The notes beneath the pieces were generated by a model. The model did no database searches. It was not told where the DNA came from and worked only from the letters and a program-made list of their open reading frames with translations. The position numbers and the translations under genes were made by a program. Positions 12,596 to 60,067 of a DNA stretch of 64,000 nt are shown one piece after another (position 1 is the first letter of the stretch; every line of letters starts with the position of its first letter). The DNA lies in contig NZ_QYBB01000012.1 in NCBI RefSeq assembly GCF_004137685.1, positions 1 to 64,000 on the forward strand. The letters run 5' to 3'. The stretch comes from Lichenibacterium minor. Its GTDB lineage: Bacteria > Pseudomonadota > Alphaproteobacteria > Rhizobiales > Beijerinckiaceae.

Positions 12596-13462
12596 TCACG
12601 CCGCGTCCATGGAGCGGAACTGCGCCACCATGCGGTCCACGTTGGGCTCTCGCCCGGCGAACAGGCGGAACGCCGCCACGGCCTGGAACACCGCCATGCC
12701 GCCGCCGTCGATCGTGCGGCAGCCGAGCGCGCGGGCGCGGCGCAGCAACTCCGTTTCCAGCGGGAAATAGATCACCTCGGCGACCCACAAGTCGGGGCGC
12801 AGCAGCGCGGCGTCGAGCGGCAGGCCCGGATGGGCCTCCATGCCGATGGGGGTGGCGTTGATGAGGCCGGTCGCGTCCGCCATGGCGGACGCGCGGTCCG
12901 TGCCGGCGACGGCGCGTCCGGGGCCGAAATGCGCCGCGAGGTTGGCCGCGACGCTGTCCGCGCGGGCGGGGTCGATGTCGAAGATGGTCAGGCGCCCGGC
13001 GCCGAGCGTCAGGGCCGCGTGGGCCACGGCCGCCCCGGCCCCGCCGGCGCCGAGCTGCACCACCCGGTCGAGGCGCGCGCCCGCCATCCCGGCACGGAAC
13101 GGCTCGGCGAAGCCGGACCAGTCGGTATTGTGCCCGATGCGGCGCCCGTCGCGGAACAGCACCGTGTTGACGGCGCCGAGCGCGCGCGCGTCGTCGGACA
13201 GGGCGTGGAGGTGGGGGATCACCGCCTGCTTGCACGGATGGGTGACGTTGATCCCGTCGAAGCCGAGGCGCTCGCAGGAGGACAGGATGTCGGGCAGCGC
13301 GTCCACGCCGAGACCGAGCGCGGCGAGGTCGATCAGCCGGTACACGCAGCGGAGGCCCTGCGCTTCCGCTTCGCGCATCTGCATCTCGGGGGTGCGGGAG
13401 CTCCCGATGTCCTGCCCCACGAGGCCGAGGAGGACCGAGGGCACGCGGCCATATCTGCTCAT
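12596..13462 (-). CDS. aroE: Quinate/shikimate dehydrogenase (QsuD-like AroE family)
   Basis: A 288-residue AroE-fold oxidoreductase that interconverts shikimate (or quinate) and the 3-dehydro form. Present are GSSRTPEMQ for substrate binding, NVTHPCKQAV with the catalytic Lys, HNTDWSGF with the Asp partner, and the Rossmann loop QLGAGGAGAAVA. The end of the second beta strand reads FDIDPARA; an Asp here usually means NAD preference. Combined with the wording of the other motifs, it looks closer to the catabolic quinate/shikimate dehydrogenases of actinobacteria (QsuD) than to biosynthetic E. coli AroE. Start at 13462 opens the domain. It is upstream of the amidotransferase gene and downstream of a tandem repeat. 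Confidence 0.85.
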   Translation of the reverse strand: MSRYGRVPSVLLGLVGQDIGSSRTPEMQMREAEAQGLRCVYRLIDLAALGLGVDALPDILSSCERLGFDGINVTHPCKQAVIPHLHALSDDARALGAVNTVLFRDGRRIGHNTDWSGFAEPFRAGMAGARLDRVVQLGAGGAGAAVAHAALTLGAGRLTIFDIDPARADSVAANLAAHFGPGRAVAGTDRASAMADATGLINATPIGMEAHPGLPLDAALLRPDLWVAEVIYFPLETELLRRARALGCRTIDGGGMAVFQAVAAFRLFAGREPNVDRMVAQFRSMDAA

Positions 13463-13498
13463 CGGGTCCGGTCCTCCTGTCGCCCCGGGTCGCACCAC

Positions 13499-13606
13499 GG
13501 GACGGCCGCTGCCGTCAAGGACCTCGGGACGGCCGCTGCCGTCAAGGACTTCGGGACGGCCGCCGCCGTCAAGGCCCCTGGGACGGCCGCCACCGTCAAG
13601 GACCGA
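13499..13606. repeat. Four tandem 27-bp hairpin repeats
   Basis: Four consecutive 27-base units (13499-13525, 13526-13552, 13553-13579, 13580-13606). Each contains GACGGCC and GCCGTCAAGG, differing at only a few positions. On the minus strand each unit can fold GACGGC/GCCGTC around a 4-base loop. The last unit overlaps the stop codon of the GNAT-like gene, whose CCTTGA is itself part of the repeat. Units are contiguous, without spacers, so this is not a CRISPR array. Confidence 0.9.
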
Positions 13607-14453
13607 AGATCGCCAGCTCGGTGTAGCTGAGGTCGCCGATCCGGGGCGGGTGGGGGCCGCGGGCGTATCGGCGCCCGCGCCGGATCCACGGCCCGCCCAC
13701 GAGCCCGCCCGGCACCCCCCCGTCGACCAGGAGCCCGACGGCGCCGCGGCGGGTCATCCACCGGCCGATCGCGCCGGCGTAGCGCGACACGTCGGCGATG
13801 TCGCGGCAGAACACGACCTGCAACACCGGCAGGGGGTAGCGGCCGGCCCGCACCCGCACCGGCGCCAGCACGAGCGGGCACGGCGGGCCCTCCGCCTCGA
13901 CCGTCAGGCAGGTGCAGCCGTATCCGCGGTGGTCGTCGAGCAGCGTCGCTTCGGGCAGGCCGCGCCACGACGCGGGGTCGGCGGACACCCGCGCGCGCTC
14001 GCCGGCCGGGCCCAGCAGCGGCAGGACGAGGCTTCGCCGCTCGGAATAGGCCCGGAACCCCTGCGCCTCGATGGTGGGCCAGGTGTGCGGCGCCGCCGAA
14101 ATGTTGGTGAAGGTCACCTCCGGACGCTTCAGCGCGGAGGCGACGAGGAACGGCGCCTGGGCGCGGAACGCGGGGTCTACGGTCCAGCTCGACAGGTTGC
14201 ACCGGACGTGGCCCGCGCCGTCGCGGCCGAACAGCATCAGGGCGACGCCGACCGGCCGGCTCCCGTCGTCGAGCAGGAACCCGTAGCGCGGGCAGCCGTC
14301 CACGGCCGGGCGCTCGCCCATCCGGCGCAGCCCCCGCTCCCAGAAGGCGCGCGGGCGGTGGGAGAAGCCGCGGCGGAGCAGCTCCGTCACGCCCGCGAGG
14401 TCCGCGTCGCGGATCTCGCGGCGGCGAACGCCCGGTCGAAACCCGTTCACCAC
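13596..14453 (-). CDS. GNAT-like acyltransferase of the carrier-protein cluster
   Basis: A 285-residue protein that opens with a GNAT-type N-terminus (REIRDADLAGVTELLRRGF, VGVALMLFG) and continues with CNLSSWTVDPAFR, a strand and pocket typical of GCN5-related N-acyltransferases. The C-terminal half is not recognised. It is divergent from the carrier protein at 14527, with 73 bases between, so they may share regulation. A natural role would be moving an acyl group from coenzyme A or a carrier protein to an amine, but this is inferred from fold and neighbours. The stop lies inside the tandem repeat. Confidence 0.55.
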   Translation of the reverse strand: MVNGFRPGVRRREIRDADLAGVTELLRRGFSHRPRAFWERGLRRMGERPAVDGCPRYGFLLDDGSRPVGVALMLFGRDGAGHVRCNLSSWTVDPAFRAQAPFLVASALKRPEVTFTNISAAPHTWPTIEAQGFRAYSERRSLVLPLLGPAGERARVSADPASWRGLPEATLLDDHRGYGCTCLTVEAEGPPCPLVLAPVRVRAGRYPLPVLQVVFCRDIADVSRYAGAIGRWMTRRGAVGLLVDGGVPGGLVGGPWIRRGRRYARGPHPPRIGDLSYTELAIFGP

Positions 14454-14526
14454 GCCGCCATCTTCACGTTGTCCCCGCAGGTCGGCATGGTAGCGTTCTC
14501 CCAGGTTGTGGAGGGGGTCTTATCCG

Positions 14527-14799
14527 ATGGACATGAGGGCGGTCATCATCTCGACGATCGAGGCGGTCGCGTCGGAACAGGGCAAGGCGTTGAAGCCGCT
14601 CACGGACGACCTCGTCCTGCTGGACTCCGGCCTGGACTCGCTGTGCTTCGCCGTTCTGGTCACCCGGCTGGAGGACGAGGTCGGATGCGACCCCTTCACC
14701 CTGTCGGACGACGTGTATTTCCCCGTCACGCTCGGCGACTTCATCCGGTTCTACGACGATGCCGCACGCCAGCAAGCCGCTCCGACGCTGGCTGCTTGA
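14527..14799 (+). CDS. Acyl carrier protein 1
   Basis: A 90-residue acidic carrier protein. The phosphopantetheine attachment motif is LDSGLDSLCFAVL, with the Ser at residue 38. A GGAGGGGG ribosome site precedes the ATG by about 10 bases; the ATG at 14533 is the alternative. Its 3' end overlaps the ligase gene by 41 bases, so the ligase that probably loads it is translationally coupled. It is distinct from the housekeeping AcpP (motif DSLD) and from the second carrier protein at 19585. Confidence 0.85.
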   Translation: MDMRAVIISTIEAVASEQGKALKPLTDDLVLLDSGLDSLCFAVLVTRLEDEVGCDPFTLSDDVYFPVTLGDFIRFYDDAARQQAAPTLAA

Positions 14800-16141
14800 G
14801 GCCGGGTCCCGGCCGGGGCGGGCGATCCACGCCCCCGGCCGGAGCCTGTCCCTCGACACGCTCGCCACAACCACGACGATCGCCCCGCTGCGGGCCGCGC
14901 TGGCGGGGCGCTCCGTGCTGGTCGCCGCGGGCGATCAGCTTTCGGCCGGCCTGGCGCTGGTCGAGCTCGACGGGCTCGCGCGCCGCATCGTGCTGGCGCC
15001 CCCGGACCTGAAGCCGTCGGACCTGCCCGCCGTCCTGGCGGGAGCGGCGATCGATGCCGTGTTCCTCGACGGCGACCACCCGAGCTGGCCCGCCGACCTC
15101 CTCGTCGCCGTGGCGGGTCCCCCCATGCCGCTGCCGCCCGACGGCGGAGAGGCGCGGGACACCGAATGGGTGATGCTGACGTCGGGGACGACCGGCACGC
15201 CCAAGATGGTGGTGCACAGCCGGGCCGGGCTCGTGGGGGCGATCGACCCCGCGGCTTCGGCGCCGGTGTGGGGCACCTTCTACGATATCCGCCGCTACGG
15301 CGGCCTGCAGATCTTCCTCCGCGCCGTTCTGGGCGGCGGCTCGCTGGTGCTGTCGCAGGCGGGCGAACCCGTGGCGGACCACCTCGCCCGGCTGGCCCGC
15401 CACGGCGTCACGCACCTGTCCGGCACGCCGTCGCACTGGCGCCGCGCCCTGATGGCGCCCGAAGCGGCGCTGATCGCGCCGCGCGCCGTGCGGCTGTCGG
15501 GCGAGATCGCCGACCAGGCGGTGCTGGACGCGCTGGCCCGCGCCTATCCCGGGGCCACGCTCGGCCACGCCTACGCGTCGACCGAGGCCGGCGTGGGGTT
15601 CGAGGTGACGGACGGGCGCGAGGGCTTCCCGGCCGCCTTTCTCCATCCGGACCGAGCCGTGGCCATGAAGGTCGAGGACGGGTCGCTGCGCATCCGCTCG
15701 ACCCGCACGGCGAGCCGCTACATCGGCGGCGGCGCGGCGGCGCTGGCCGACGCCGACGGCTACGTCGACACGGACGACCTCGTCGAGCGCCGGGGCGACC
15801 GGATGCATTTCGTCGGCCGCCGTTCCGGGATCATCAACGTCGGCGGGCTGAAGGTCCACCCCGAGGAAGTCGAGGCCGTGATCAACCGCCATGCCGGGGT
15901 CCGCATGTCGCTCGTCAAGGCGCGCGCGAATCCGATCACCGGCGCCATCGTGGTGGCCGACGTGGTGGCGGACGAGCCCTTCCCGGACGGGACCGGCGGT
16001 GACCGGCAGACCGCGATGAAGGCCGAAATCCTGGAGCTGTGCCGGGCGACGCTCCCCGCCCACAAGGTGCCGGTGCTGCTGCGCTTCGCCGCCGCGCTCG
16101 CCATGACCCCCGCGGGAAAGTTGCAGCGGCGCGATGCGTAA
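14759..16141 (+). CDS. Acyl-activating (AMP-forming) ligase
   Basis: A 460-residue class I adenylate-forming enzyme. Visible are the P-loop MLTSGTTGTPKMV (about 139-151), the A5 motif HAYASTEAG, TDDLVERRG for ribose binding, the hinge RSGIINVGGLKVHPEEVE and the catalytic Lys in TPAGKLQRRD near the end. It is somewhat short at the N-terminus, like many acyl-ACP ligases. It would activate a carboxylic acid with ATP and pass it to carrier protein 1, in whose 3' end it starts. The next gene, an SDR, overlaps its end by 8 bases. The acid cannot be predicted; a CoA ligase is the alternative. Confidence 0.82.
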   Translation: MPHASKPLRRWLLEAGSRPGRAIHAPGRSLSLDTLATTTTIAPLRAALAGRSVLVAAGDQLSAGLALVELDGLARRIVLAPPDLKPSDLPAVLAGAAIDAVFLDGDHPSWPADLLVAVAGPPMPLPPDGGEARDTEWVMLTSGTTGTPKMVVHSRAGLVGAIDPAASAPVWGTFYDIRRYGGLQIFLRAVLGGGSLVLSQAGEPVADHLARLARHGVTHLSGTPSHWRRALMAPEAALIAPRAVRLSGEIADQAVLDALARAYPGATLGHAYASTEAGVGFEVTDGREGFPAAFLHPDRAVAMKVEDGSLRIRSTRTASRYIGGGAAALADADGYVDTDDLVERRGDRMHFVGRRSGIINVGGLKVHPEEVEAVINRHAGVRMSLVKARANPITGAIVVADVVADEPFPDGTGGDRQTAMKAEILELCRATLPAHKVPVLLRFAAALAMTPAGKLQRRDA

Positions 16142-16868
16142 CGTCCTCGTCACCGGCGGCAGCCGAGGCCTCGGCCTGGGCATCGTCCGCGACCTCGCCG
16201 CCAGCGGCCACCGCGTCCTGGCCGTGGCGCGGCGTTCGAGCGATGCGCTCGACGCGGCCGCCGAAGCCGCGGCGCGGGAGGGAACGGGCGAGATCCGCTT
16301 CGTCGCGCTCGACCTCGCCGACATCGACGCCATCCCGGCCATGGTGCAGGAGCAGCGCCGCCTGCACGGGCCGCTCTTCGGGCTCGTCAACAACGCCGGA
16401 ATCGGCACCGAGGGCCTGCTGGCCACGATGCACAACGCCCAGATCGAGGCGCTGATCCGCATCAACACCCTGTCGCCGATCGTGCTCAGCAAATACGCGG
16501 TGCGGGGCATGATGGCCGAGGGCCGGGGTCGCGTGGTCAACATGGCCTCGATCATCGGCTCCACGGGCTACAACGGCCTGTCGGTCTACGGCGCCACCAA
16601 GGCGTCGCTGGTGGGCTTCACCAAGTCTCTGGCGCGCGAGGTCGGGCGGGTCGGCATCACCGTCAACGCGGTGGCGCCGGGCTTCGTCGAAACGGAGCTG
16701 ACGGGCGGCCTCGGGGATCAGCAGCGCGAGCAGATCGCCAAGCGCAGCGCGCTCAAGCGCCTGGCCGAGGTCGAGGACGTCGCCAAGGCGGTCGGCTTCC
16801 TGATGAGTGACGCGGCGCGCAACATCACCGGCACGGTGCTGACGGTGGACGCCGGCAACACGGCGTGA
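16134..16868 (+). CDS. SDR, 3-oxoacyl-ACP reductase-like
   Basis: A 244-residue short-chain dehydrogenase/reductase similar to FabG. It shows the cofactor loop TGGSRGLGLGI, NNAG, the catalytic Ser in NMASIIGS, YGATK with Tyr and Lys, and VNAVAPGFVETEL. R residues near the second strand (VARRSS) suggest NADPH. It overlaps the ligase end by 8 bases, making a carrier protein-ligase-SDR operon, so the substrate is probably a beta-keto or carbonyl group on carrier protein 1. A hairpin follows the stop. Confidence 0.85.
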   Translation: MRNVLVTGGSRGLGLGIVRDLAASGHRVLAVARRSSDALDAAAEAAAREGTGEIRFVALDLADIDAIPAMVQEQRRLHGPLFGLVNNAGIGTEGLLATMHNAQIEALIRINTLSPIVLSKYAVRGMMAEGRGRVVNMASIIGSTGYNGLSVYGATKASLVGFTKSLAREVGRVGITVNAVAPGFVETELTGGLGDQQREQIAKRSALKRLAEVEDVAKAVGFLMSDAARNITGTVLTVDAGNTA

Positions 16869-16869
16869 C

Positions 16870-16886
16870 GCGCGGCGCCGCCGCGC
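16870..16886 (+). terminator. Hairpin after the SDR gene
   Basis: GCGCGGC and GCCGCGC form a perfect 7-bp stem around GCC, 2 bases after the SDR stop. No T tract follows, so termination is plausible but unproven. Confidence 0.45.
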
Positions 16887-17081
16887 CATAAACTCCACTG
16901 CGTTCGATGATGCCGCGCGGCGGACCTCCGCCCACACGGCGTGCGCGGGCCGCAGGGTCGGACGGGATGCGACGCCGCTGCCGGCGACATCCGGCCGGAC
17001 GTCCCCGCGGCCTGTCAGATGGTCCGACCGCGATCCCGGGCCGGCGGTGCACGCCGGCCGGGGTGCACCGCCGGGGTGCCT

Positions 17082-18014
17082 TCAGAACCGCAGCGCGTCG
17101 CGCACCGCCGCCGGCCATCCTGCCGGATCCGTCCCGTGCGTGGCGAACATCGCCACCGCGAGCCGGTCCATGCCGAAGGCCACGCAGCCCGTGTGGGCGA
17201 TGCCGCCCTCGGCGTCGCGGATACCCCACACGTCGCCGAAATGGTCCTTGTGGTTGTTGAAGCTCATGCAGGCCGTCGGCTTCTCGGCGGACCGCACGGG
17301 GACGACCAGCTCGAACTTCAGGGCGTCCTGGCGCTGCATGGCGGCCATCATCAGCCCGACCTTGCCGAAGAAGGGGTCGTTGGCCTGCTCCAGCGCGTAG
17401 GGCAGGCCGAGCCGGCCGGCCATGCCCTGCGCGGTGTCGATCCACCGCTCGCGGAAGGCCGCCACGTCGGCGGGCGAGCCGATGCACACGTATTCGCGCA
17501 TGCGGAAGGATTGGAACCGGTCGGCGTGGGGCGACGGCTCGCGGCGGAAGCAGTCGCTGGCGACGTCGAAGCGCAGCCCCCCCTCGGGCAGCGGGCCGCG
17601 GCGCGCCGCGATCGGGTAGACCGGGTAGCAGGCCGCGGGCGTCAGCACGAGGTCGCCGGCTTCGAGCCCCTCCGTCCAGTCGCCTCCGGCTTCGAAGGTC
17701 GCCACGGCGGCGCGGATGTCGCGCTCCGTGCCGCCGAGCGCGCACATGCAGCCGAGCAGGTTGGGGAAGCTCTTCAGATAGCCCGAGCGCTCCAGCGTCC
17801 GCCGGCTCATCACGGGCGGGAACCGCATCACCTCCGTGCCGTCCTCGCGGTGGGCGGACACGAAGGCGGCGAGGCGCTCGACCACGTCCTCGTAGACGCC
17901 CCGGCGCCCGTACACGCCCGCCACCCCGGTGGGATGGAACAGGGCCTCCATCAGGCCGACGAGGCGGTCGTCGACCTCGTCGAAGGAAGCGTCGAGGCGC
18001 AGGGGCGCGGTCAT
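17082..18014 (-). CDS. Amino acid:[carrier protein] ligase
   Basis: A 310-residue homologue of the catalytic core of class II seryl-tRNA synthetase without a tRNA-binding arm. This matches the amino acid:[carrier protein] ligases first described in Bradyrhizobium (Bll0957), which activate glycine or alanine with ATP and load it on the phosphopantetheine of a small carrier protein. Class II motif 2 (CFRREPS...FRMREYV) and motif 3 (FGMDRLAVAMF) are visible. Cys129, Glu174 and Cys277 fit the zinc site known in that family (131, 176, 279) with a constant offset. It lies 34 bases downstream of the dehydrogenase gene, in one operon. Its partner should be the carrier protein at 19585. Amino acid specificity is inferred. 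Confidence 0.9.
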   Translation of the reverse strand: MTAPLRLDASFDEVDDRLVGLMEALFHPTGVAGVYGRRGVYEDVVERLAAFVSAHREDGTEVMRFPPVMSRRTLERSGYLKSFPNLLGCMCALGGTERDIRAAVATFEAGGDWTEGLEAGDLVLTPAACYPVYPIAARRGPLPEGGLRFDVASDCFRREPSPHADRFQSFRMREYVCIGSPADVAAFRERWIDTAQGMAGRLGLPYALEQANDPFFGKVGLMMAAMQRQDALKFELVVPVRSAEKPTACMSFNNHKDHFGDVWGIRDAEGGIAHTGCVAFGMDRLAVAMFATHGTDPAGWPAAVRDALRF

Positions 18015-18048
18015 GGCGGTGGAACTCCGAAGATCGTGGGCCGGGCCG

Positions 18049-19278
18049 TCAGTCGGCGAGGCCGGCCGGCACCGGCGCCATCAGGGCGGGGCTGGCGAGG
18101 CTCGACAGGATGCGGTCGTTGTTGATCATCAGCGGCGCGGACAGCACGTCGCGCAGCTGCCGCCCGATGCTGCTGTCGCCGTCGTTGCGGTAGCCCGACA
18201 GGCCGCAGGCGCGCAGCGCGCTCGTCACCGCCGCGACGGCCGTGTCCGAGGCCTCGACCTTCAGCAGGTTCATCGCCACGGCGAACTCGAAGCCGTTGAA
18301 ATGCGCCTCGTCGGCGAACGCCGCCTCGCAGCGCTCCACGCCGTCGCGCACCATCAGGCGCAGGCCGCGCAGCGACGACTGGGCGCGCGTGTAATGCGCG
18401 GCGCCCGGCGGCATCTGCCCCTTGGCCCGGCGCGCCGCGGCGCGCAGGAACGCTTGCGCCCGTTCGACGGCCGCCGCCGCGATGCCGCTCCACACGGCCC
18501 CCCACAGCACATGCGCCACCGGCGTTATGGTGCGGGCGTGGATCACGTCGTAGCCGACCGGCAGCACCTGCCCGGCGGCGGCGCGGGCGTGGAGCTTGAA
18601 GCCGCGGCTGCAGGTGCCCCGCATGCCCAGCGTGTCCCAGGCCTGGCCGGGGTCGAGCCGGTAATGCTCGCGCAGCAGCACGACCAGCACCTGGTCGGAG
18701 CCGGCGGCCTCGGCGGAACGCCGCGCCGTGGTGACGATGGCGTCGGCCTGCGCGCCGTAGGAGATCACGGTGGAATCGCGGTCGAGCGACACGGTGCCGT
18801 CCTCGGCGGCCTCGATGGCGGCGGCGCTGCTGCGCACGTTTCCGCCGCTGAGCCCTTCGGTCGTCGAGGACGCGAGCAGCCACTGGTGCGCGGCGACGCT
18901 CCGCAGCACGCCCTCGTGGAAAGGCGCGCCGCCGGCATGGCGCACCACGCAGGCCAGCTTGATCTGGTGCATGGCGAAGATCAGCGCCGTGGACGAACAC
19001 CGGCGGCCGAGCCTGAAGCAGACGTCCGCCACCTCGCCCAGCGAAGCGCCGTCGCCGCCGAACGCGCGGGGAACCGCCATCCCCAGCAACCGCTGCGCCT
19101 TCAGGGCGGCGAGGGCCTCGGCCGGGAAGCGACCCTCGCGGTCCACCGCGACGGCATGTTCGCCCGCCACGGCGGCGGCGGCCTCGGCCCGCTGCACCAC
19201 CGGCCGGGTCCCGGCGCCGTGGAGCCCGCAGGCCGAGAGCTCGATGCCCCGTGCATCCTCGACCCTCTCGTCCAACAT
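18049..19278 (-). CDS. Acyl-CoA-dehydrogenase-like flavoprotein
   Basis: A 409-residue member of the acyl-CoA dehydrogenase fold. It shows the N-terminal helical part (FPAEALAALKAQRLLGMAVPRAFGG), a middle part (WLLASSTTEGLSGGNVRSS) and a C-terminal helical bundle with GLSGYRNDGDSSIGRQLRDVL, where flavin contacts lie. It probably oxidises an acyl or aminoacyl group held on a carrier protein, because the next gene is the aminoacyl:carrier protein ligase. The ATG at 19278 has GGAGCGG in front and is preferred over the GTG at 19314. I cannot point to the catalytic Glu with confidence. Confidence 0.72.
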   Translation of the reverse strand: MLDERVEDARGIELSACGLHGAGTRPVVQRAEAAAAVAGEHAVAVDREGRFPAEALAALKAQRLLGMAVPRAFGGDGASLGEVADVCFRLGRRCSSTALIFAMHQIKLACVVRHAGGAPFHEGVLRSVAAHQWLLASSTTEGLSGGNVRSSAAAIEAAEDGTVSLDRDSTVISYGAQADAIVTTARRSAEAAGSDQVLVVLLREHYRLDPGQAWDTLGMRGTCSRGFKLHARAAAGQVLPVGYDVIHARTITPVAHVLWGAVWSGIAAAAVERAQAFLRAAARRAKGQMPPGAAHYTRAQSSLRGLRLMVRDGVERCEAAFADEAHFNGFEFAVAMNLLKVEASDTAVAAVTSALRACGLSGYRNDGDSSIGRQLRDVLSAPLMINNDRILSSLASPALMAPVPAGLAD

Positions 19279-19584
19279 GGCTGCCGCTCCGATGCCGATC
19301 GCGCCGCCTGCCACGGCACGTTGTATCGCCTATCCTGAACCGGCCTGCAGCGCACGACATAGCGTCGATCATTGTTAAGGGCGCGACAACAGCGTCATGG
19401 TAAACAGATGATGAAGATGACGATATGACATGGATCGACGCGTGTCCCCGCGCAGAAACCATCATTCTTGTTTCGTGACCAGTTGATTCAACTTACATTG
19501 ACAAGGGCGAGGCGTGAAACCAGTGTCCGCGGCAGAGATACGGCGAGATGCCCGGAGCGGTCCGGGGCGCCTGGAGGTGCTGCG
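19279..19584. other. AT-richer divergent promoter region of the aminoacyl-carrier genes
   Basis: A 306-base gap between the dehydrogenase start (minus) and carrier protein 2 (plus). It is clearly less GC-rich than its surroundings, especially 19320-19510, as expected for a control region. A TTGACA at 19498-19503 is a -35 candidate for the carrier protein but has no good -10. I see no palindromic operator of note. Confidence 0.55.
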
Positions 19585-19851
19585 ATGTTGGACCATGTGA
19601 AGTCTTCCCCCGCGCGCCGGATCGGCAACCTCGTCGAAGACATCCTGTCCCGCCGCGGCGTGGACGGACCCGTCGCGCCGGATGCGGAACTGGCCCGCTT
19701 CGGCATGACGTCGATCGACATGGTCGAGGTGATGCTCGGCGTCGAGGCGGAGTTCGACGTCGCGATCCCGCCGGTCGAGATCACCATGGACAACTTTCGC
19801 TCGGTGGCCGCCATGGTGCGCCTGGTGTCCCGGCTGAGCCCGGCCGCCTGA
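19585..19851 (+). CDS. Carrier protein 2 (probable aminoacyl carrier)
   Basis: An 88-residue carrier protein with the attachment site FGMTSIDMVEVMLGVE, Ser at residue 43. A good GGAGG ribosome site lies 7 bases before the ATG. Its position, divergent from the amino acid:[carrier protein] ligase operon, matches the known pairing of such ligases with their own small carrier proteins, so it is the probable aminoacyl acceptor. It differs from carrier protein 1, which has GLDS at the site. The large helicase-nuclease gene follows in the same direction after 21 bases. Confidence 0.85.
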   Translation: MLDHVKSSPARRIGNLVEDILSRRGVDGPVAPDAELARFGMTSIDMVEVMLGVEAEFDVAIPPVEITMDNFRSVAAMVRLVSRLSPAA

Positions 19852-19872: not shown

Positions 19873-22800
19873 TTGCCTTGGCGGGCTCATCCGCGCTTTG
19901 GTGCGGACCATGAGACAGCCGAGGGGCGCACCCTGAACGCACACGACACAGGCGGGGACCACGCGGCGCCCGGGACGGCGGCCGCCCGGCTGGTGGACCT
20001 TCTCGACTACATCGAACAGGTCGTGCGCCTGGACGAGCGCGTGGCGTTCCGCCTCGCCGACTACCGCATGCCCGACGGCACCGCGCTGGCGCTGCGCTCC
20101 GCCGAGGTCGCGGGCCTGCCGGGCGTCGCCACCGACCTCCGGGACGGGGAAGCCCCGGCCTGGCTCGCGGTGGAGCGCCTCGCCCGGACCCGCCCTCCCG
20201 CGCCGGCGGACGCGCTCCGGCCCTGGCTGCCCGAGGTCGCCGATCCAGCGGTTCCGCCCGCGGCCGCGCCCGAGATCCTCCGCACCGTGTCGGCCGCCGA
20301 GCGCGCGGCGCTGATCGCCGCCGACTGCGCCGCCGAGGAGGACTTCGCCCCCGTGCCGGCCCGCGACGGCGCCGACGGGCATGGCGGCTTCGACCTTCGC
20401 CTCCGCTTCGCCGAGCAGCCCGGGCTCGCGGACGCTTTGGCGGCCTATCGCGCCGGGCCCTGGGCCGATTGGTCGGCCGAGGAAGCCCTGCGCCGCCGCA
20501 CGATCGCGCTCTACGGCCAGCTTTACCGCCTCCAGCAGCTGTTGGAGCTCGGCGGCGGCGAGGGCGCCGTCGAGGCGGTGTGGGGCATCGGCACGGTGCG
20601 CTGGCGCCGCGGCGGCCGGACGGTCGATCGTCCGCTGCTGGAATGCCCCGTCGAACTCGACCTCGCGCCCGACGGCCGCCTGTCCGTTCGGCCGACCGGC
20701 GCGGCGCCGCGCTTCGACCTCAAGCCCTACGAGGAGTTGGCGTGCGACGGCATGCCGGCGCTCGACGCCGCCCTGCGCGCGGAGCTCGCCGTCGCCGAAG
20801 CGGACGACGGCGTGTCCCCGTTCCGCCCCGCCTCCTTCGCGTCGGCGCTGCGCGTCGCCGCCACGCGCCTGTCCGCTGGCGGGACCTACGCGGATGCCCC
20901 CGGCCACCCGGGCGATGCCGCTCCCGACGAGCCGGCCGTCGCGGGGGATTGGGTGCTCTACGCGCGGCCGCGTTCCCAGCACGTGGTGCTCGACGACATC
21001 GCCCGCTTCCGCGCCGCGGCGCGGGCCGGCCTGCCGGTGAGCGGCCTGGCCGAGCGCCTCGTCACGCCGCCGTCGGACGCCGCCGGCGAAGCCTGGGCCC
21101 CGCTCGGCGACCGCTTCGGCGCGGAGGACCGGGACCCGCCCGCCGCCGCGGGCGAGCCCGCCTTCGGCGAGGTGTTCTTTCCGAAGCCCTTCAACGACGA
21201 CCAGGTCGCCATCGTGCGGCATCTGGCGGGGGCCGACGGCCTCGTCGTGCAGGGGCCGCCGGGCACCGGCAAGACGCATACGATCGCCAACATCATCTGC
21301 CACGCCATGGCGCTGGGCCAGCGCGTCCTGGTGGTGTCGCGCGGCGAAGCGGCCCTCAGCGTGTTGCGCGAGCAACTGCCCGAGAAGGTGCGGCCGCTCA
21401 CCATCGCGATCCTGTCGTCCGAACGGCAGGGCCTGCGGCAGGTCGAGGGCGCGATCCGCGAGATCCAGGCGGTGGTGGAGGAAAGCCGGCCCGAGATCCG
21501 CCTGTCCGCCATCCGCCGCTGCGAAGCCGAGATCGTCAAGATCCGCGCCCGCATCGCCGCCGTCGACGCCGAGATGGACGGGTTGGCGGCGCAGCAGTCC
21601 CTGCCGCTCGGCCCCGACGGCGAACTGCCGGCCGTGCTGGCCCGCCGCGTCGCCGGCGACCGCGGCGCGCGCCCCTGGTTCGACGATGCGCCGGAGGTCT
21701 ATGCCGCCGAGGCCGGGCTCGGCGACGACGTCCTGGAACGGCTGCGCCGCGCGCGCGCAGCGGCGGCCCAGTTCCTCGACCACTGCGACGCCGACCTGCC
21801 CCGCGCCGACGCCCTGCCGACGCCCGCCGGGCTGGCGGCCTGGCACGAGGACCTGCTCGACGGGGAGCGCCTCGCCACCGCGGCCGCGGCCGGCCCGGTG
21901 CCGACCCTGCACCTGCCGGCGGAGCTGGCCGACGCCGCGACCCGCACCGGCACGGCGCTGCGCGACATGGCGACGGCGGCGGAAGCCGCCATGGCACGGC
22001 CCGGGTTGTTTCCGCTCGCCGTCGCGGCCCTGCGCGGCGACGGTTCGGCCGGGGCGGCGGCGCTGCGGTCCTGCTGCCAGGCTTGGCGCGACATCGAGGC
22101 GGAACGCACCCGCCTGGCCGCCGCGGCGGTGGACCTGCCGCCGGGCATCGCGGACGACGCGGAAGCGCGCGACGCGGTGGCGCGAGCCCGGCGCGGCGAG
22201 CGCCTGTGGCCGATGGTGTCGTTCGGCCACGGCGGCTCCAAGGACCGCCTCGCGGCGGTTCGGGTGCGCGGCCGCCCGCCGGGCCGGGCGGGCGACGATT
22301 GGGCGGCGATCGACGACGCGCTGGCGCTCGTCGACGCCCGCGTGGCGCTGGCGGCACGCTGGCGCCAGTTCGCCACCGATGCGGGCGCGCCGGCCGGAGC
22401 CGATGCCGGCGACCCCGCCGACGCGGCCCGCCTCCTCGGGCTCGCGGCCGCCCTCGCGACATCGTTCGACGGGCTCGGCCCGGCGGCCCGGCGGTTTCCC
22501 GCGCCGGACGCCCTCGCCCGCGATCCCGCCCTCGCCCGCGCGCTGGCGGCGCAGGTCGAGGCTTCGGCGGCGTCGGCCCGCCTCGTCGGCGTGGCGGAAG
22601 GCATCGCCGCGGCGGTCGCCCGCTTCGCCGGGCAGGACCGCACGTCGGTGATGGCGCGGCAGATCCTCGAATCGCTCGTCGGCCGCGCCGACCTCCCGGC
22701 CGACAAGGTTTCCGGGCTGTGGCGGGCCCTGCTGGCGCGCCTCGGCGACATCGCGGGGCGGGAGCCCGACCTCGCGGTGGTGCGGCGGACGGCGGACGGG

Positions 22801-24753
22801 ATCGCCGCCGCGGGCGCCCCCCGATGGGCCGCGCGCCTCCGCTCGGACCCGTCGCCCGAAGCCCTGCCGGACGATTGGCGCCTCGCGTGGGACGCCGCAG
22901 CGGCGAAGCGCAAGCTGGCCCGCACCGATGGGCGGGAGCCCCTGCTCGCCCTGGCGCGCGAGCGCGACGCGCTCGACCGGCGCGGCCGGAAGCTCTTCGT
23001 CGAGCTCGTGCGCGAGCGCGCCTTCTACGAGCTCGAGCGGCGCCTGTCGCCGCGGGTGAAATCGGCGCTGGTCGAATACGTCCGGGCGCTGGGGCGGCTC
23101 GGGAAGGGGACCGGAAAGGGGGCGGGCCGCCACCGCCGCGTGGCCCGGGACGCCATGGCGCGCTGCTACGACGCCGTGCCCTGCTGGATCATGCCGACGT
23201 GGCGGGTCGCCGAGCAGCTGCCCTCCGACATGGCGGCCTTCGACCTCGTGGTCCTGGACGAGGCGTCGCAGTCCGACGTGACGGAGCTGCCCGCCCTGCT
23301 GCGCGGCCGCAAGATCCTCGCCGTCGGCGACGACCGGCAGGTGAGCCCGACCCCGCCCTTCGTGAGCCAGGGCCAGGTGGCGCAGCTCCGCCACCGCCAC
23401 CTGCGGCACCTGCCCTATGCGGCACTGCTGGAACCCGGCGAAAGCCTCTACGACCTGATGCGGGCGGTGTTCCCCGACAGCCGGCTGATGCTGAAGGAGC
23501 ATTTCCGCTGCGTCGAGCCCATCATCCGCTTCTCGATGGGCTTCTACCCTGAAACGCTGGTCCCGCTGCGCGTGCCGGCAGCGTCCGAGCGGCTCGACCC
23601 GCCGCTCGTCGACATCTTCGTGCCGCACGGCGCCCGCGACGGCGCCCGCAAGATCAACCGCGCCGAAGCGGAGGTGATCGTCGAGGAGGTCGCGCGGCTG
23701 ATCGCGTCGCCCGAAGGCGCGAGCCGCTCGGTCGGGGTGATCTCCCTCATCGGCTCCGAGCAGGCCGAGCTGGTGCGCGTACTGCTGGCCGAGCGGATCG
23801 GCGAGGAAGCGATGCAGCGCCACCGCGTGCTCTGCGCCAACAGCGCCGGCTTCCAAGGGAACGAGCGCGACGTCGTGTTTCTGTCCATGGTGGCGGACCG
23901 GCGCCGGCGCACGACACTGACCGCCCTGCCCTACGAGCAGCGGTTCAACGTGGCGGCCTCGCGCGCCCGCGACCGCCTGGTGCTGGTGCGCTCCGTCGGT
24001 CTCGACGACCTCGCGGCGGCCGATCTCAAGCACCGGCTCATCTCCCATTTCGAGCGCCCGATGCCCGTCGGCTCCGCACCGGCGCGGGACCTCACGGAGC
24101 GCTGCGAATCGGGCTTCGAGCGCGACGTGCTCGCCCGCCTGCTCGCGCTCGGCTACCGCGTCGAGCCGCAGGTCGGGTCGGAGGGATTCCGCATCGACCT
24201 CGTGGTCGAGGACTTCGAAGGCCGGCGCCTCGCGGTCGAATGCGACGGCGACAGCTTCCACGGGCCCGAGCGCTGGCGCGACGACATGCGCCGCCAGCGC
24301 ATCCTGGAGCGCGTCGGCTGGCGCTTCTGGCGCTGCTTCGCGTCGAGCTTCTACCGCGATCCCGACGGCGTCATGGCCGACCTCGTGGCGACGCTGGAGC
24401 GCGACGGCATCGCGCCGGTCGGCGGCGCGGCCGGGCCGGCCGCGGTGGCGCGCGTCGTCGAGCACCGCGTGGCGCCGGCGCCCGCTGGTCCGGACGCGTC
24501 GCCGCCGGAGGATGGGAGGGCCGCGGAGCGCATCGCGGTCGGCGACCGCGTCGCGCTGCTGTTCCCCGACCGCCGTCGCCTGACGCTGCGGCTGACCGAC
24601 GGCGCCGACGATCGCGAGGGCGGCCTCCTGTCCGTCGCGACGGCGCTCGGCGCCGCCGTGGCGCGGGCCGACGAAGGGGACGAGGTCGAGGTGGCGGAGG
24701 GCGGGTCCGAGCCGGTCCGGGTGCTGGTTGAAGCGGTGGTGCGGGCGGCCTAG
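19873..24753 (+). CDS. SF1 helicase with C-terminal endonuclease-like domain
   Basis: A 1626-residue protein. Residues 1-430 are an uncharacterised N-terminal part. Walker A GPPGTGKTHT lies near 461, Walker B VVLDEASQSD near 1126 and motif VI NVAASRARDRL near 1358, all of the UvrD/Upf1-like superfamily I. The C-terminal part (about 1420-1510) has CESGFERDV, GFRIDLVVED, LAVECDGDSFHG and GWRFWRCF, the pattern of the MTES_1575-type restriction endonuclease fold (Asp...Glu-x-Asp). Such helicase-nuclease fusions occur in defence islands, so a role against foreign DNA or RNA is plausible but inferred. The start is uncertain: TTG at 19873, or a CTG at 19933 that has GAGGGG ahead of it. No methylase or toxin is adjacent. 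Confidence 0.8.
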   Translation: MPWRAHPRFGADHETAEGRTLNAHDTGGDHAAPGTAAARLVDLLDYIEQVVRLDERVAFRLADYRMPDGTALALRSAEVAGLPGVATDLRDGEAPAWLAVERLARTRPPAPADALRPWLPEVADPAVPPAAAPEILRTVSAAERAALIAADCAAEEDFAPVPARDGADGHGGFDLRLRFAEQPGLADALAAYRAGPWADWSAEEALRRRTIALYGQLYRLQQLLELGGGEGAVEAVWGIGTVRWRRGGRTVDRPLLECPVELDLAPDGRLSVRPTGAAPRFDLKPYEELACDGMPALDAALRAELAVAEADDGVSPFRPASFASALRVAATRLSAGGTYADAPGHPGDAAPDEPAVAGDWVLYARPRSQHVVLDDIARFRAAARAGLPVSGLAERLVTPPSDAAGEAWAPLGDRFGAEDRDPPAAAGEPAFGEVFFPKPFNDDQVAIVRHLAGADGLVVQGPPGTGKTHTIANIICHAMALGQRVLVVSRGEAALSVLREQLPEKVRPLTIAILSSERQGLRQVEGAIREIQAVVEESRPEIRLSAIRRCEAEIVKIRARIAAVDAEMDGLAAQQSLPLGPDGELPAVLARRVAGDRGARPWFDDAPEVYAAEAGLGDDVLERLRRARAAAAQFLDHCDADLPRADALPTPAGLAAWHEDLLDGERLATAAAAGPVPTLHLPAELADAATRTGTALRDMATAAEAAMARPGLFPLAVAALRGDGSAGAAALRSCCQAWRDIEAERTRLAAAAVDLPPGIADDAEARDAVARARRGERLWPMVSFGHGGSKDRLAAVRVRGRPPGRAGDDWAAIDDALALVDARVALAARWRQFATDAGAPAGADAGDPADAARLLGLAAALATSFDGLGPAARRFPAPDALARDPALARALAAQVEASAASARLVGVAEGIAAAVARFAGQDRTSVMARQILESLVGRADLPADKVSGLWRALLARLGDIAGREPDLAVVRRTADGIAAAGAPRWAARLRSDPSPEALPDDWRLAWDAAAAKRKLARTDGREPLLALARERDALDRRGRKLFVELVRERAFYELERRLSPRVKSALVEYVRALGRLGKGTGKGAGRHRRVARDAMARCYDAVPCWIMPTWRVAEQLPSDMAAFDLVVLDEASQSDVTELPALLRGRKILAVGDDRQVSPTPPFVSQGQVAQLRHRHLRHLPYAALLEPGESLYDLMRAVFPDSRLMLKEHFRCVEPIIRFSMGFYPETLVPLRVPAASERLDPPLVDIFVPHGARDGARKINRAEAEVIVEEVARLIASPEGASRSVGVISLIGSEQAELVRVLLAERIGEEAMQRHRVLCANSAGFQGNERDVVFLSMVADRRRRTTLTALPYEQRFNVAASRARDRLVLVRSVGLDDLAAADLKHRLISHFERPMPVGSAPARDLTERCESGFERDVLARLLALGYRVEPQVGSEGFRIDLVVEDFEGRRLAVECDGDSFHGPERWRDDMRRQRILERVGWRFWRCFASSFYRDPDGVMADLVATLERDGIAPVGGAAGPAAVARVVEHRVAPAPAGPDASPPEDGRAAERIAVGDRVALLFPDRRRLTLRLTDGADDREGGLLSVATALGAAVARADEGDEVEVAEGGSEPVRVLVEAVVRAA

Positions 24754-56005: not shown

Positions 56006-60067
<4,062 letters not shown>

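What the first reader, a model, noticed from the sequence alone, without database searches (positions are those of the whole stretch)
13499..19851. Cluster with two carrier proteins and an amino acid:[carrier protein] ligase, product unknown
In 6.3 kb lie two distinct small carrier proteins (Ser38 in GLDS; Ser43 in MTSID), two different activating enzymes (an AMP-forming acyl ligase and a seryl-tRNA-synthetase-like aminoacyl:carrier protein ligase with Cys129/Glu174/Cys277 at the family zinc positions), an SDR, an acyl-CoA-dehydrogenase homologue and a GNAT-like protein. The parts would allow one arm to load and reduce an acyl chain and the other to load and oxidise glycine or alanine, with the GNAT joining them. 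The ligase family is known but its final product is not, and the pairing with an acyl arm in one locus is the new element. The joined product is inference.
Basis: partly seen in the sequence, partly recalled or inferred. Interest (0 to 1): 0.85.

Follow-up and report, generated by a model that had tools for sequence, protein, structure and literature searches.

The report
Two-carrier-protein glycyl/acyl biosynthesis cluster
Seven neighbouring genes form a real, conserved biosynthetic set in which one small carrier protein is probably charged with an amino acid by a tRNA-synthetase-like enzyme and a second with another acid, perhaps to be joined into a still unknown small molecule.

Summary
The aminoacyl:carrier-protein ligase passes the PRK07080 cut-off and is close to the solved Bll0957. 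The "GNAT" has no Pfam or NCBIfam match but is predicted to be a tandem GNAT. The pairing of the two arms is not peculiar to this genome. The ligases fall into two clades. One (type B) sits with DUF1839 and a glycosidase, a context apparently noted in 2010. The other (type A, this window) goes with the acyl arm: among 149 family genomes all 26 with a type A ligase also hold the acyl ligase and the GNAT, also where unlinked, and in all nine genera where presence varies. In six loci of one other genus the GNAT sits in the aminoacyl arm, so it may bridge the arms. The "acyl-CoA dehydrogenase" lacks both usual base positions and resembles flavin monooxygenases about as well as dehydrogenases, but its best sequence match is a dehydrogenase that also lacks one of them. 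Against: six genomes have the acyl ligase without a type A ligase. Substrates, joining step and product are inferred. Verdict: a new variant of a known kind; product unknown.

The parts
13596..14453 (-). Tandem GNAT-fold protein (285 aa), proposed acyl/aminoacyl transferase joining the two arms
   Evidence: No Pfam/NCBIfam match; model pLDDT 87, Foldseek 7q3a, 3ddd, Eis; VIA-align 3ddd Z 13.8, rmsd 5.1 over 244 residues; in 31 of 32 genomes with the acyl ligase
14454..14526 (.). Short divergent intergenic stretch between GNAT (-) and CP1 (+); same divergent layout in relatives
   Evidence: coordinates; GNAT divergent from CP1 in all 13 of the 18 linked loci where GNAT was found by tblastn
14527..14799 (+). 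CP1, acyl-arm carrier protein (90 aa), Ser38 in GLDSL
   Evidence: PF00550 21.6 bits, cut-off 20.8; D37-S38-L39 invariant in 18 of 18
14759..16141 (+). LIG, AMP-forming acyl ligase (460 aa); from this first ATG the frame overlaps CP1, and its end overlaps SDR
   Evidence: PF00501, PF13193; alignment A1 of 18 loci, Lys454 and Glu276 invariant
16134..16868 (+). SDR / FabG-like reductase (244 aa)
   Evidence: PF13561 E 5.5e-53; present in 79 of 80 named LIG loci
17082..18014 (-). AACP, amino acid:[carrier protein] ligase, type A clade; zinc positions Cys129/Glu174/Cys277
   Evidence: NF005479 454 bits over cut-off 357; 3mey Bll0957 471 bits; clade
18049..19314 (-). ACAD-fold flavoenzyme (421 aa; an ATG at codon 13 is an alternative start), proposed flavin monooxygenase or dehydrogenase acting on aminoacyl-CP2
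   Evidence: PF02771, PF00441; model matches DszC/TdsC/KijD3 and dehydrogenases; usual base positions lost
19315..19584 (.). Divergent intergenic stretch between ACAD (-) and CP2 (+)
   Evidence: coordinates; CP2 and ACAD divergent in 15 of the 16 linked loci that have both, L046 being the exception
19585..19851 (+). CP2, aminoacyl-arm carrier protein (88 aa), Ser43 in MTSID
   Evidence: PF00550 36.3 bits; Ser43 invariant in 25 of 25 including 4 type B

Best explanation
The locus is a two-armed, carrier-protein-dependent biosynthetic cassette. Aminoacyl arm: the seryl-tRNA-synthetase-like ligase activates a small amino acid (glycine, by analogy with Bll0957; recalled) and loads it on CP2; the ACAD-fold flavoenzyme then oxidises the CP2-bound aminoacyl group, somewhat more likely by monooxygenation than by classical alpha,beta-dehydrogenation. 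Acyl arm: LIG loads a carboxylic acid of unknown identity on CP1 and the SDR reduces it. The tandem GNAT moves one tethered group onto the other and so makes the joined product. Shown: family membership, conserved active residues, co-inheritance of the arms with the GNAT. Inferred: every substrate, the kind of oxidation, and the joining step.
For: Family calls and residues. Arms linked in 18 of 60 fetched ligase loci (window included), in several orders and orientations; 0 of 60 have both LIG and DUF1839. Type A and type B ligases separate on a quick tree, SH-aLRT 100. All 26 type A genomes of 149 have LIG and GNAT, also where unlinked; in the 9 genera with both kinds of genome, 21 of 21 type A genomes have LIG and GNAT, against 2 of 24 (LIG) and 4 of 24 (GNAT) without type A. 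Order sample: 25 of 28 LIG genomes have the ligase family, base rate 95 of 397. Of 7 fetched g78 loci 6 lack LIG, and in all 6 GNAT stands beside AACP; it is divergent from CP1 in 13 of 13 linked loci where tblastn found it. L037's PVAHLVW (PVAHVLW in the window) aligns with PIAQLIF of DszC, where a butyryl-CoA dehydrogenase has LDGGR. Flavin reductase genes in 5 of the 171 partly overlapping stretches scanned (L045, L046, L155, L172, L231).
Against: Six genomes have LIG without a type A ligase: G007, G016, G048, G113 (type B or a fragment) and G089, G102 (none); G089 is listed 100% complete. GNAT is not beside CP1 in L132, L134, L141 or L228. ACAD and CP2 were found in 16 of 18 linked loci. 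The cluster is often larger, and the window genome has no class IV aminotransferase of the kind seen there (E 1e-70). VIA-align ties monooxygenases with dehydrogenases (Z 38-41), and the best sequence match, the dehydrogenase 7p98, also has Thr where other ACADs have the catalytic Glu. Fisher values ignore relatedness; only the best few candidates per genome were scored (11, 4 and 16). No substrate was tested.
Confidence: 0.5

Rival explanations
1. The flavoenzyme is a dehydrogenase of the tethered aminoacyl thioester, as prolyl-carrier-protein dehydrogenase or ColB1 are, and makes an imino or dehydro group; the rest is as in the best explanation.
For: ACAD domains; VIA-align Z 40.7 to an ACAD and 39.5 to ColB1 7xp7, which dehydrogenates cysteine on an assembly line; prolyl-ACP dehydrogenase 4irn in the profile search; best sequence match 7p98 is a dehydrogenase that also lacks Glu in the YEGT stretch (IYTGT), so that loss alone does not exclude dehydrogenation.
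Against: The YEGT Glu position is Ile and the alternative LDxER-type position Ala/Ser/Thr, each in 23 of 23 (the second position is recalled); Foldseek's ten best rows are DszC, TdsC and KijD3, though the eleventh, a dehydrogenase, is close in E-value.
Confidence: 0.3
2. Two separate pathways that are only co-located: the aminoacyl arm makes one product, the acyl arm (with GNAT and usually a long-chain acyl-CoA synthetase) another.
For: In most named Bradyrhizobium loci the arms are apart; acyl arm without any ligase in G089; type B ligases have other partners.
Against: 26 of 26 co-occurrence even when unlinked, in all nine variable genera; GNAT in the aminoacyl locus in six loci.
Confidence: 0.2
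3. GNAT works in the other direction: it transfers the (oxidised) aminoacyl group from CP2 to an acceptor, as Fem-type and aminoacyl-phosphatidylglycerol synthases do from aminoacyl-tRNA; the acyl arm supplies the acceptor.
For: FemX 7z6a (E 9e-6, TMq 0.32) and A-PGS 4v35 (E 2e-5, TMq 0.26) are among the GNAT model's matches, with low TM-scores; in six g78 loci GNAT sits with the aminoacyl arm.
Against: The best matches are acetyltransferases and other GNATs; in 13 of 13 linked loci where it was found GNAT is divergent from CP1.
Confidence: 0.3

Closest known systems
Amino acid:[carrier protein] ligases (Bll0957 and relatives; Mocibob et al. 2010, not held, recalled; NF005479)
   Same: Same ligase family, zinc residues, a carrier protein close by
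   Different: What I know of that work stops at carrier-protein loading; here a second carrier protein, its own ligase, a reductase and a GNAT go with it
Type B neighbourhood: ligase + ACP + redox enzyme + conserved uncharacterised protein + glycosidase (Iyer et al. 2010, note added in proof, PMC2922099, passages; that the uncharacterised protein is DUF1839 is my inference)
   Same: Ligase, carrier protein and ACAD-fold enzyme shared
   Different: No DUF1839 or GH2 gene in the 18 linked type A loci; GNAT and acyl arm instead; separate ligase clade
Class D flavin monooxygenases (DszC, MsuC, nitrososynthases) and aminoacyl-carrier dehydrogenases (prolyl-ACP DH, ColB1)
   Same: Fold of the flavoenzyme
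   Different: About 20% identity; substrate would be a carrier-bound amino acid; reaction unknown
GNAT-class N-acyltransferases (tandem GNATs such as MAB_4324, Eis)
   Same: Tandem GNAT fold
   Different: No sequence-family match; the loop that I read as the RxxGxG/A motif has Ala100 in 12 of 12, so a carrier-bound donor is possible

Membership tests
Amino acid:[carrier protein] ligase (NF005479/PRK07080) | Score over curated cut-off | tested here: met
   454 bits, cut-off 357
   C129, E174, C277 in the window and in 23 of 23 aligned
Amino acid:[carrier protein] ligase (NF005479/PRK07080) | Loads glycine or alanine on the adjacent carrier protein | not testable with these tools
   needs enzyme assay
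Type B (DUF1839) aminoacyl transfer system | DUF1839 and GH2 genes beside the ligase | tested here: not met
   none found in the window locus (L094) or in the other 17 LIG-bearing loci at my tblastn thresholds
Type B (DUF1839) aminoacyl transfer system | Ligase in the type B clade | tested here: not met
   window ligase in the other clade, SH-aLRT 100 in a quick tree
Acyl-CoA dehydrogenase | ACAD fold and Pfam domains | tested here: met
Acyl-CoA dehydrogenase | Catalytic Glu at either usual position (positions recalled) | tested here: not met
   Ile397 in 23 of 23 and Ala/Ser/Thr267 in 23 of 23, positions read from HMMER alignments; the dehydrogenase 7p98 also lacks the first
Class D flavin monooxygenase | Fold match | tested here: met
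   3x0y E 1.3e-17; VIA Z 39.7, rmsd 2.9 over 374 residues, tied with dehydrogenases
Class D flavin monooxygenase | Partner flavin reductase | tested here: inconclusive
   gene nearby in 5 of 171 scanned stretches, not in L094; the rest of the window genome was not searched for it
GNAT | GNAT fold | tested here: met
GNAT | Q/RxxGxG/A pyrophosphate loop (recalled; placed by eye) | tested here: not met
   R-x-x-A in 11 of 12 and Q-x-x-A in 1, then L/F/M/V/P two places on
Carrier protein (PF00550) | Phosphopantetheine serine and Pfam cut-off | tested here: met
   CP1 21.6 bits and CP2 36.3 bits, cut-off 20.8; Ser38, Ser43

The most novel reading that the evidence does not exclude
Hydroxamate-like assembly on two carrier proteins: the flavoenzyme N-hydroxylates glycyl-CP2 and the GNAT acylates the nitrogen with the reduced acyl group of CP1, giving an N-acyl-N-hydroxyglycine-type small molecule (a chelator or antimetabolite) by a tRNA-synthetase-derived route with no NRPS, present in Hyphomicrobiales such as Lichenibacterium relatives and Bradyrhizobium.
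Probability: 0.12. Interest if true: 0.85.

Novelty: new variant of a known kind. Interest (0 to 1): 0.62.

Why it matters
Carrier-protein ligases derived from aminoacyl-tRNA synthetases have solved structures (Bll0957, eleven PDB entries), but my searches found no paper that gives them a product. This work splits the family into two genomic kinds and gives the Bll0957-like kind a defined set of partners that travel together. That turns 'product unknown' into a concrete experiment: two ligases, two carriers, a flavoenzyme, a reductase, a transferase and a deletion strain in a workable genus.

Tried and rejected
Chance neighbourhood: rejected by recurrence in other genera and by co-occurrence when unlinked. 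DUF1839-type system: rejected for the window. ThDP enzyme and class IV aminotransferase as obligate partners: rejected, since both families are common in this bacterial family (105 and 85 of 149 genomes over cut-off), the window genome has no match to that aminotransferase family (E 1e-70), and its ThDP enzyme lies on another contig. Structure as judge between monooxygenase and dehydrogenase: inconclusive (ties them although ranks monooxygenases first). Shikimate dehydrogenase 12596-13498 as part of the system: at the threshold found only in the window's own locus (1 of 60); a weak match in L060. Literature: searches showed no paper on this pairing; the library holds open-licence papers only, one search listed 40 of 121 papers and one search listed 20 of 108, and the founding PNAS paper is not held. 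Rows dropped: of 62 ligase matches, 60 were fetched (a 44-residue fragment in G132 and a weak hit in G061 were not); from the tree the fragment L061, the distant L062 and L063, L143 (same place as L036) and short matches such as L207 were left out. Long branches were flagged in that tree (L172 and others). Thresholds are mine and can miss diverged genes: GNAT was missed by tblastn in 5 of 18 linked loci, while the profile found it somewhere in all 26 type A genomes.
Full report
Observation. Every checked item of the finding holds. CP1 (14527-14799, +) has its GLDS serine at residue 38 and CP2 (19585-19851, +) its MTSID serine at residue 43; the ligase (17082-18014, -) has Cys129, Glu174 and Cys277. 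Pfam and NCBIfam name the AMP-forming ligase, the SDR, the acyl-CoA-dehydrogenase homologue, both carrier proteins (Pfam; CP1 only just over cut-off) and the amino acid--[acyl-carrier-protein] ligase, the last with 454 bits against a cut-off of 357. The 285-residue 'GNAT-like' protein matches no family there, but its AlphaFold2 model (12 sequences, pLDDT 87) matches tandem GNAT proteins (7q3a, 3ddd, Eis; VIA-align 3ddd Z 13.8, rmsd 5.1 over 244 residues). The layout is GNAT (-), CP1-LIG-SDR (+; overlapping frames if LIG starts at its first ATG), AACP and ACAD (-), CP2 (+).

Organism.

Are the arms a unit? I fetched 60 of the 62 matches to the ligase family from 149 genomes of the same family, the window's included. 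LIG lies within the fetched stretch in 18 of 60, DUF1839 in 31 of 60, both in 0 of 60, neither in 11 of 60. The 18 linked loci show several orders and orientations; CP1, LIG and SDR are together in 18 of 18, ACAD and CP2 with the ligase in 16 of 18, and the gap between ligase and LIG runs from 0.7 to 7.2 kb. The order CP2, ACAD, AACP, SDR, LIG, CP1, GNAT or its mirror is the commonest, 9 of 18; the window has the mirror.

Two ligase clades. A quick tree of 76 ligases separates the DUF1839-linked ligases from the LIG-linked ones (SH-aLRT 100 on the dividing branches; one truncated locus without DUF1839, L074, lies in the DUF1839 clade; several long branches are flagged). The eight loci of this family in the LIG clade that lack LIG nearby come from genomes that hold LIG elsewhere. 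So all 26 genomes with a type A ligase hold LIG, and all 26 hold the GNAT. LIG occurs in 32 of 149 (E 1e-40) and GNAT in 36 of 149 (E 1e-10). For the whole ligase family, types A and B together, 30 of 32 LIG genomes have it against 58 of 149 overall. The Fisher values for type A (1e-23 with LIG, 3e-21 with GNAT) ignore relatedness. A contrast less open to that objection: nine genera contain genomes with and without the type A ligase; in them 21 of 21 with it have LIG and GNAT, against 2 of 24 (LIG) and 4 of 24 (GNAT) without it (genus codes). In a wider order sample of 397 genomes LIG is in 28, and 25 of these have the ligase family, against 95 of 397 overall. In these searches only the best few candidates per genome were scored (11, 4, 16), so single absences are less sure than presences.

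Against. LIG without a type A ligase occurs in six genomes: G007, G016, G048 and G113 have a type B ligase or a fragment, G089 and G102 none; G089 is listed as 100% complete. GNAT without LIG occurs in five, four of them weak matches. In the order sample the ten LIG genomes of genus code g78 all have the ligase family; g78 is probably Bradyrhizobium by its gene order and genome size (inference).

The bridge. Of seven fetched ligase loci of g78 genomes, six lack LIG (L223-L227, L233), and in all six the GNAT stands directly beside AACP, with ACAD and CP2; in the seventh (L228) both arms and GNAT lie together, GNAT some way from each. In the linked loci of the window's family GNAT is divergent from CP1 in 13 of the 13 where tblastn found it; in L132, L134 and L141 it is near the acyl arm but not beside CP1. 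A gene found with one arm or the other when the arms separate is what a joining enzyme would look like. That is an inference from location, not a demonstration.

The flavoenzyme. The profile finds dehydrogenases, nitrososynthases, DszC, methanesulfinate monooxygenase and prolyl-ACP dehydrogenase. Foldseek's ten best rows are three monooxygenase-type proteins, DszC, TdsC and KijD3, but dehydrogenases follow at once with similar E-values; VIA-align ties the two groups at Z 38 to 41. In HMMER alignments the Glu of the YEGT stretch falls on Ile397 and the alternative LDxER-type position (recalled) on residue 267; these are Ile in 23 of 23 and Ala/Ser/Thr in 23 of 23. The best sequence match, the dehydrogenase 7p98, has IYTGT and so lacks the first Glu too, which speaks against reading that loss as proof. 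His268 is invariant, and PVAHLVW of L037 (PVAHVLW in the window) aligns with PIAQLIF of DszC. Flavin reductase genes lie close by in five of the 171 partly overlapping stretches scanned (L045, L046, L155, L172, L231). I lean to monooxygenation; Iyer et al. 2010 guessed the same for the enzyme beside the relatives they examined (PMC2922099, passages). Dehydrogenation is not excluded.

Larger cluster. Among the 18 linked loci the esterase is in 10, class IV aminotransferase in 9, long-chain acyl-CoA synthetase in 8, MetY-like, MetA-like and ThDP enzyme in 7 each (names). The ThDP and aminotransferase families are common in this bacterial family (105 and 85 of 149 genomes). The window genome has two FadD6-like synthetases and one ThDP enzyme on other contigs and no match to that aminotransferase family; I did not search it for MetY or MetA. 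These genes may complete the pathway or be neighbours of convenience.

Which carrier for which ligase. CP2-type proteins sit with the ligase and flavoenzyme in both clades, CP1 only with LIG. Solved Bll0957 has 471 bits to the window ligase and 330 to a type B ligase; a variant entry of Bll0957 (4h2w) scores higher than the wild type with the type B ligase and lower with the window one, the visible differences lying in one loop. I recall that this loop touches the carrier protein. Substrate glycine is recalled for Bll0957 and not tested here.

Print. Ligases that add Ala, Gly or Ser to a carrier protein are tabulated in a 2022 review (PMC9437257, passages). DUF1839 is a papain-like family (PMC10318531, passages). 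I found no paper on the type A pairing (search listings, two of them capped), which cover open-licence papers only.

Judgement. As a conserved unit: strong. As a mechanism: a plausible chain with inferred substrates. As novelty: a new genomic variant of a known enzyme family that gives a concrete route to its missing product.

Noticed in passing
window 19873-24750 (+): Directly after CP2 lies a 1626-aa helicase-nuclease (AAA_11/AAA_12 with an MTES_1575 nuclease domain) that resembles anti-phage proteins ProA and Hhe far below their cut-offs; a relative follows CP2 in L035 too.
   Followed up: no
window 56006-60067 (-): A large protein read by eye as adenylation plus carrier domain with membrane and hexapeptide-repeat-like stretches (PF00550 hit at 58232-58420; frame), possibly of the poly-amino-acid synthetase kind; a third carrier domain in the window, about 38 kb away.
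   Followed up: no
G000:C122:379360-380235 and G000:C122:294550-296205: The window genome has a second GNAT of this family (336 bits), on the same contig, about 83 kb from its only close ThDP enzyme.
   Followed up: no
L057, L058, L060: In small genomes of one genus (code g2) ligase and flavoenzyme sit between MetY/MetA-like genes and what look like sulfate assimilation genes (by eye), with no CP2 found at the thresholds used; LIG and GNAT are elsewhere.
   Followed up: partly
L172 (Gemmatimonas MAG), L191 (Caulobacter MAG): Named MAGs outside Hyphomicrobiales carry both arms; the Gemmatimonas ligase branches deepest in the type A clade on a long branch, whose place is unsure.
   Followed up: partly
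window 14759-16141, LIG residues 178-179: Two arginines, invariant in 18 of 18, follow the conserved FYDI stretch, perhaps near the acid pocket; they might bind a second acidic group of the substrate (inference).
   Followed up: no
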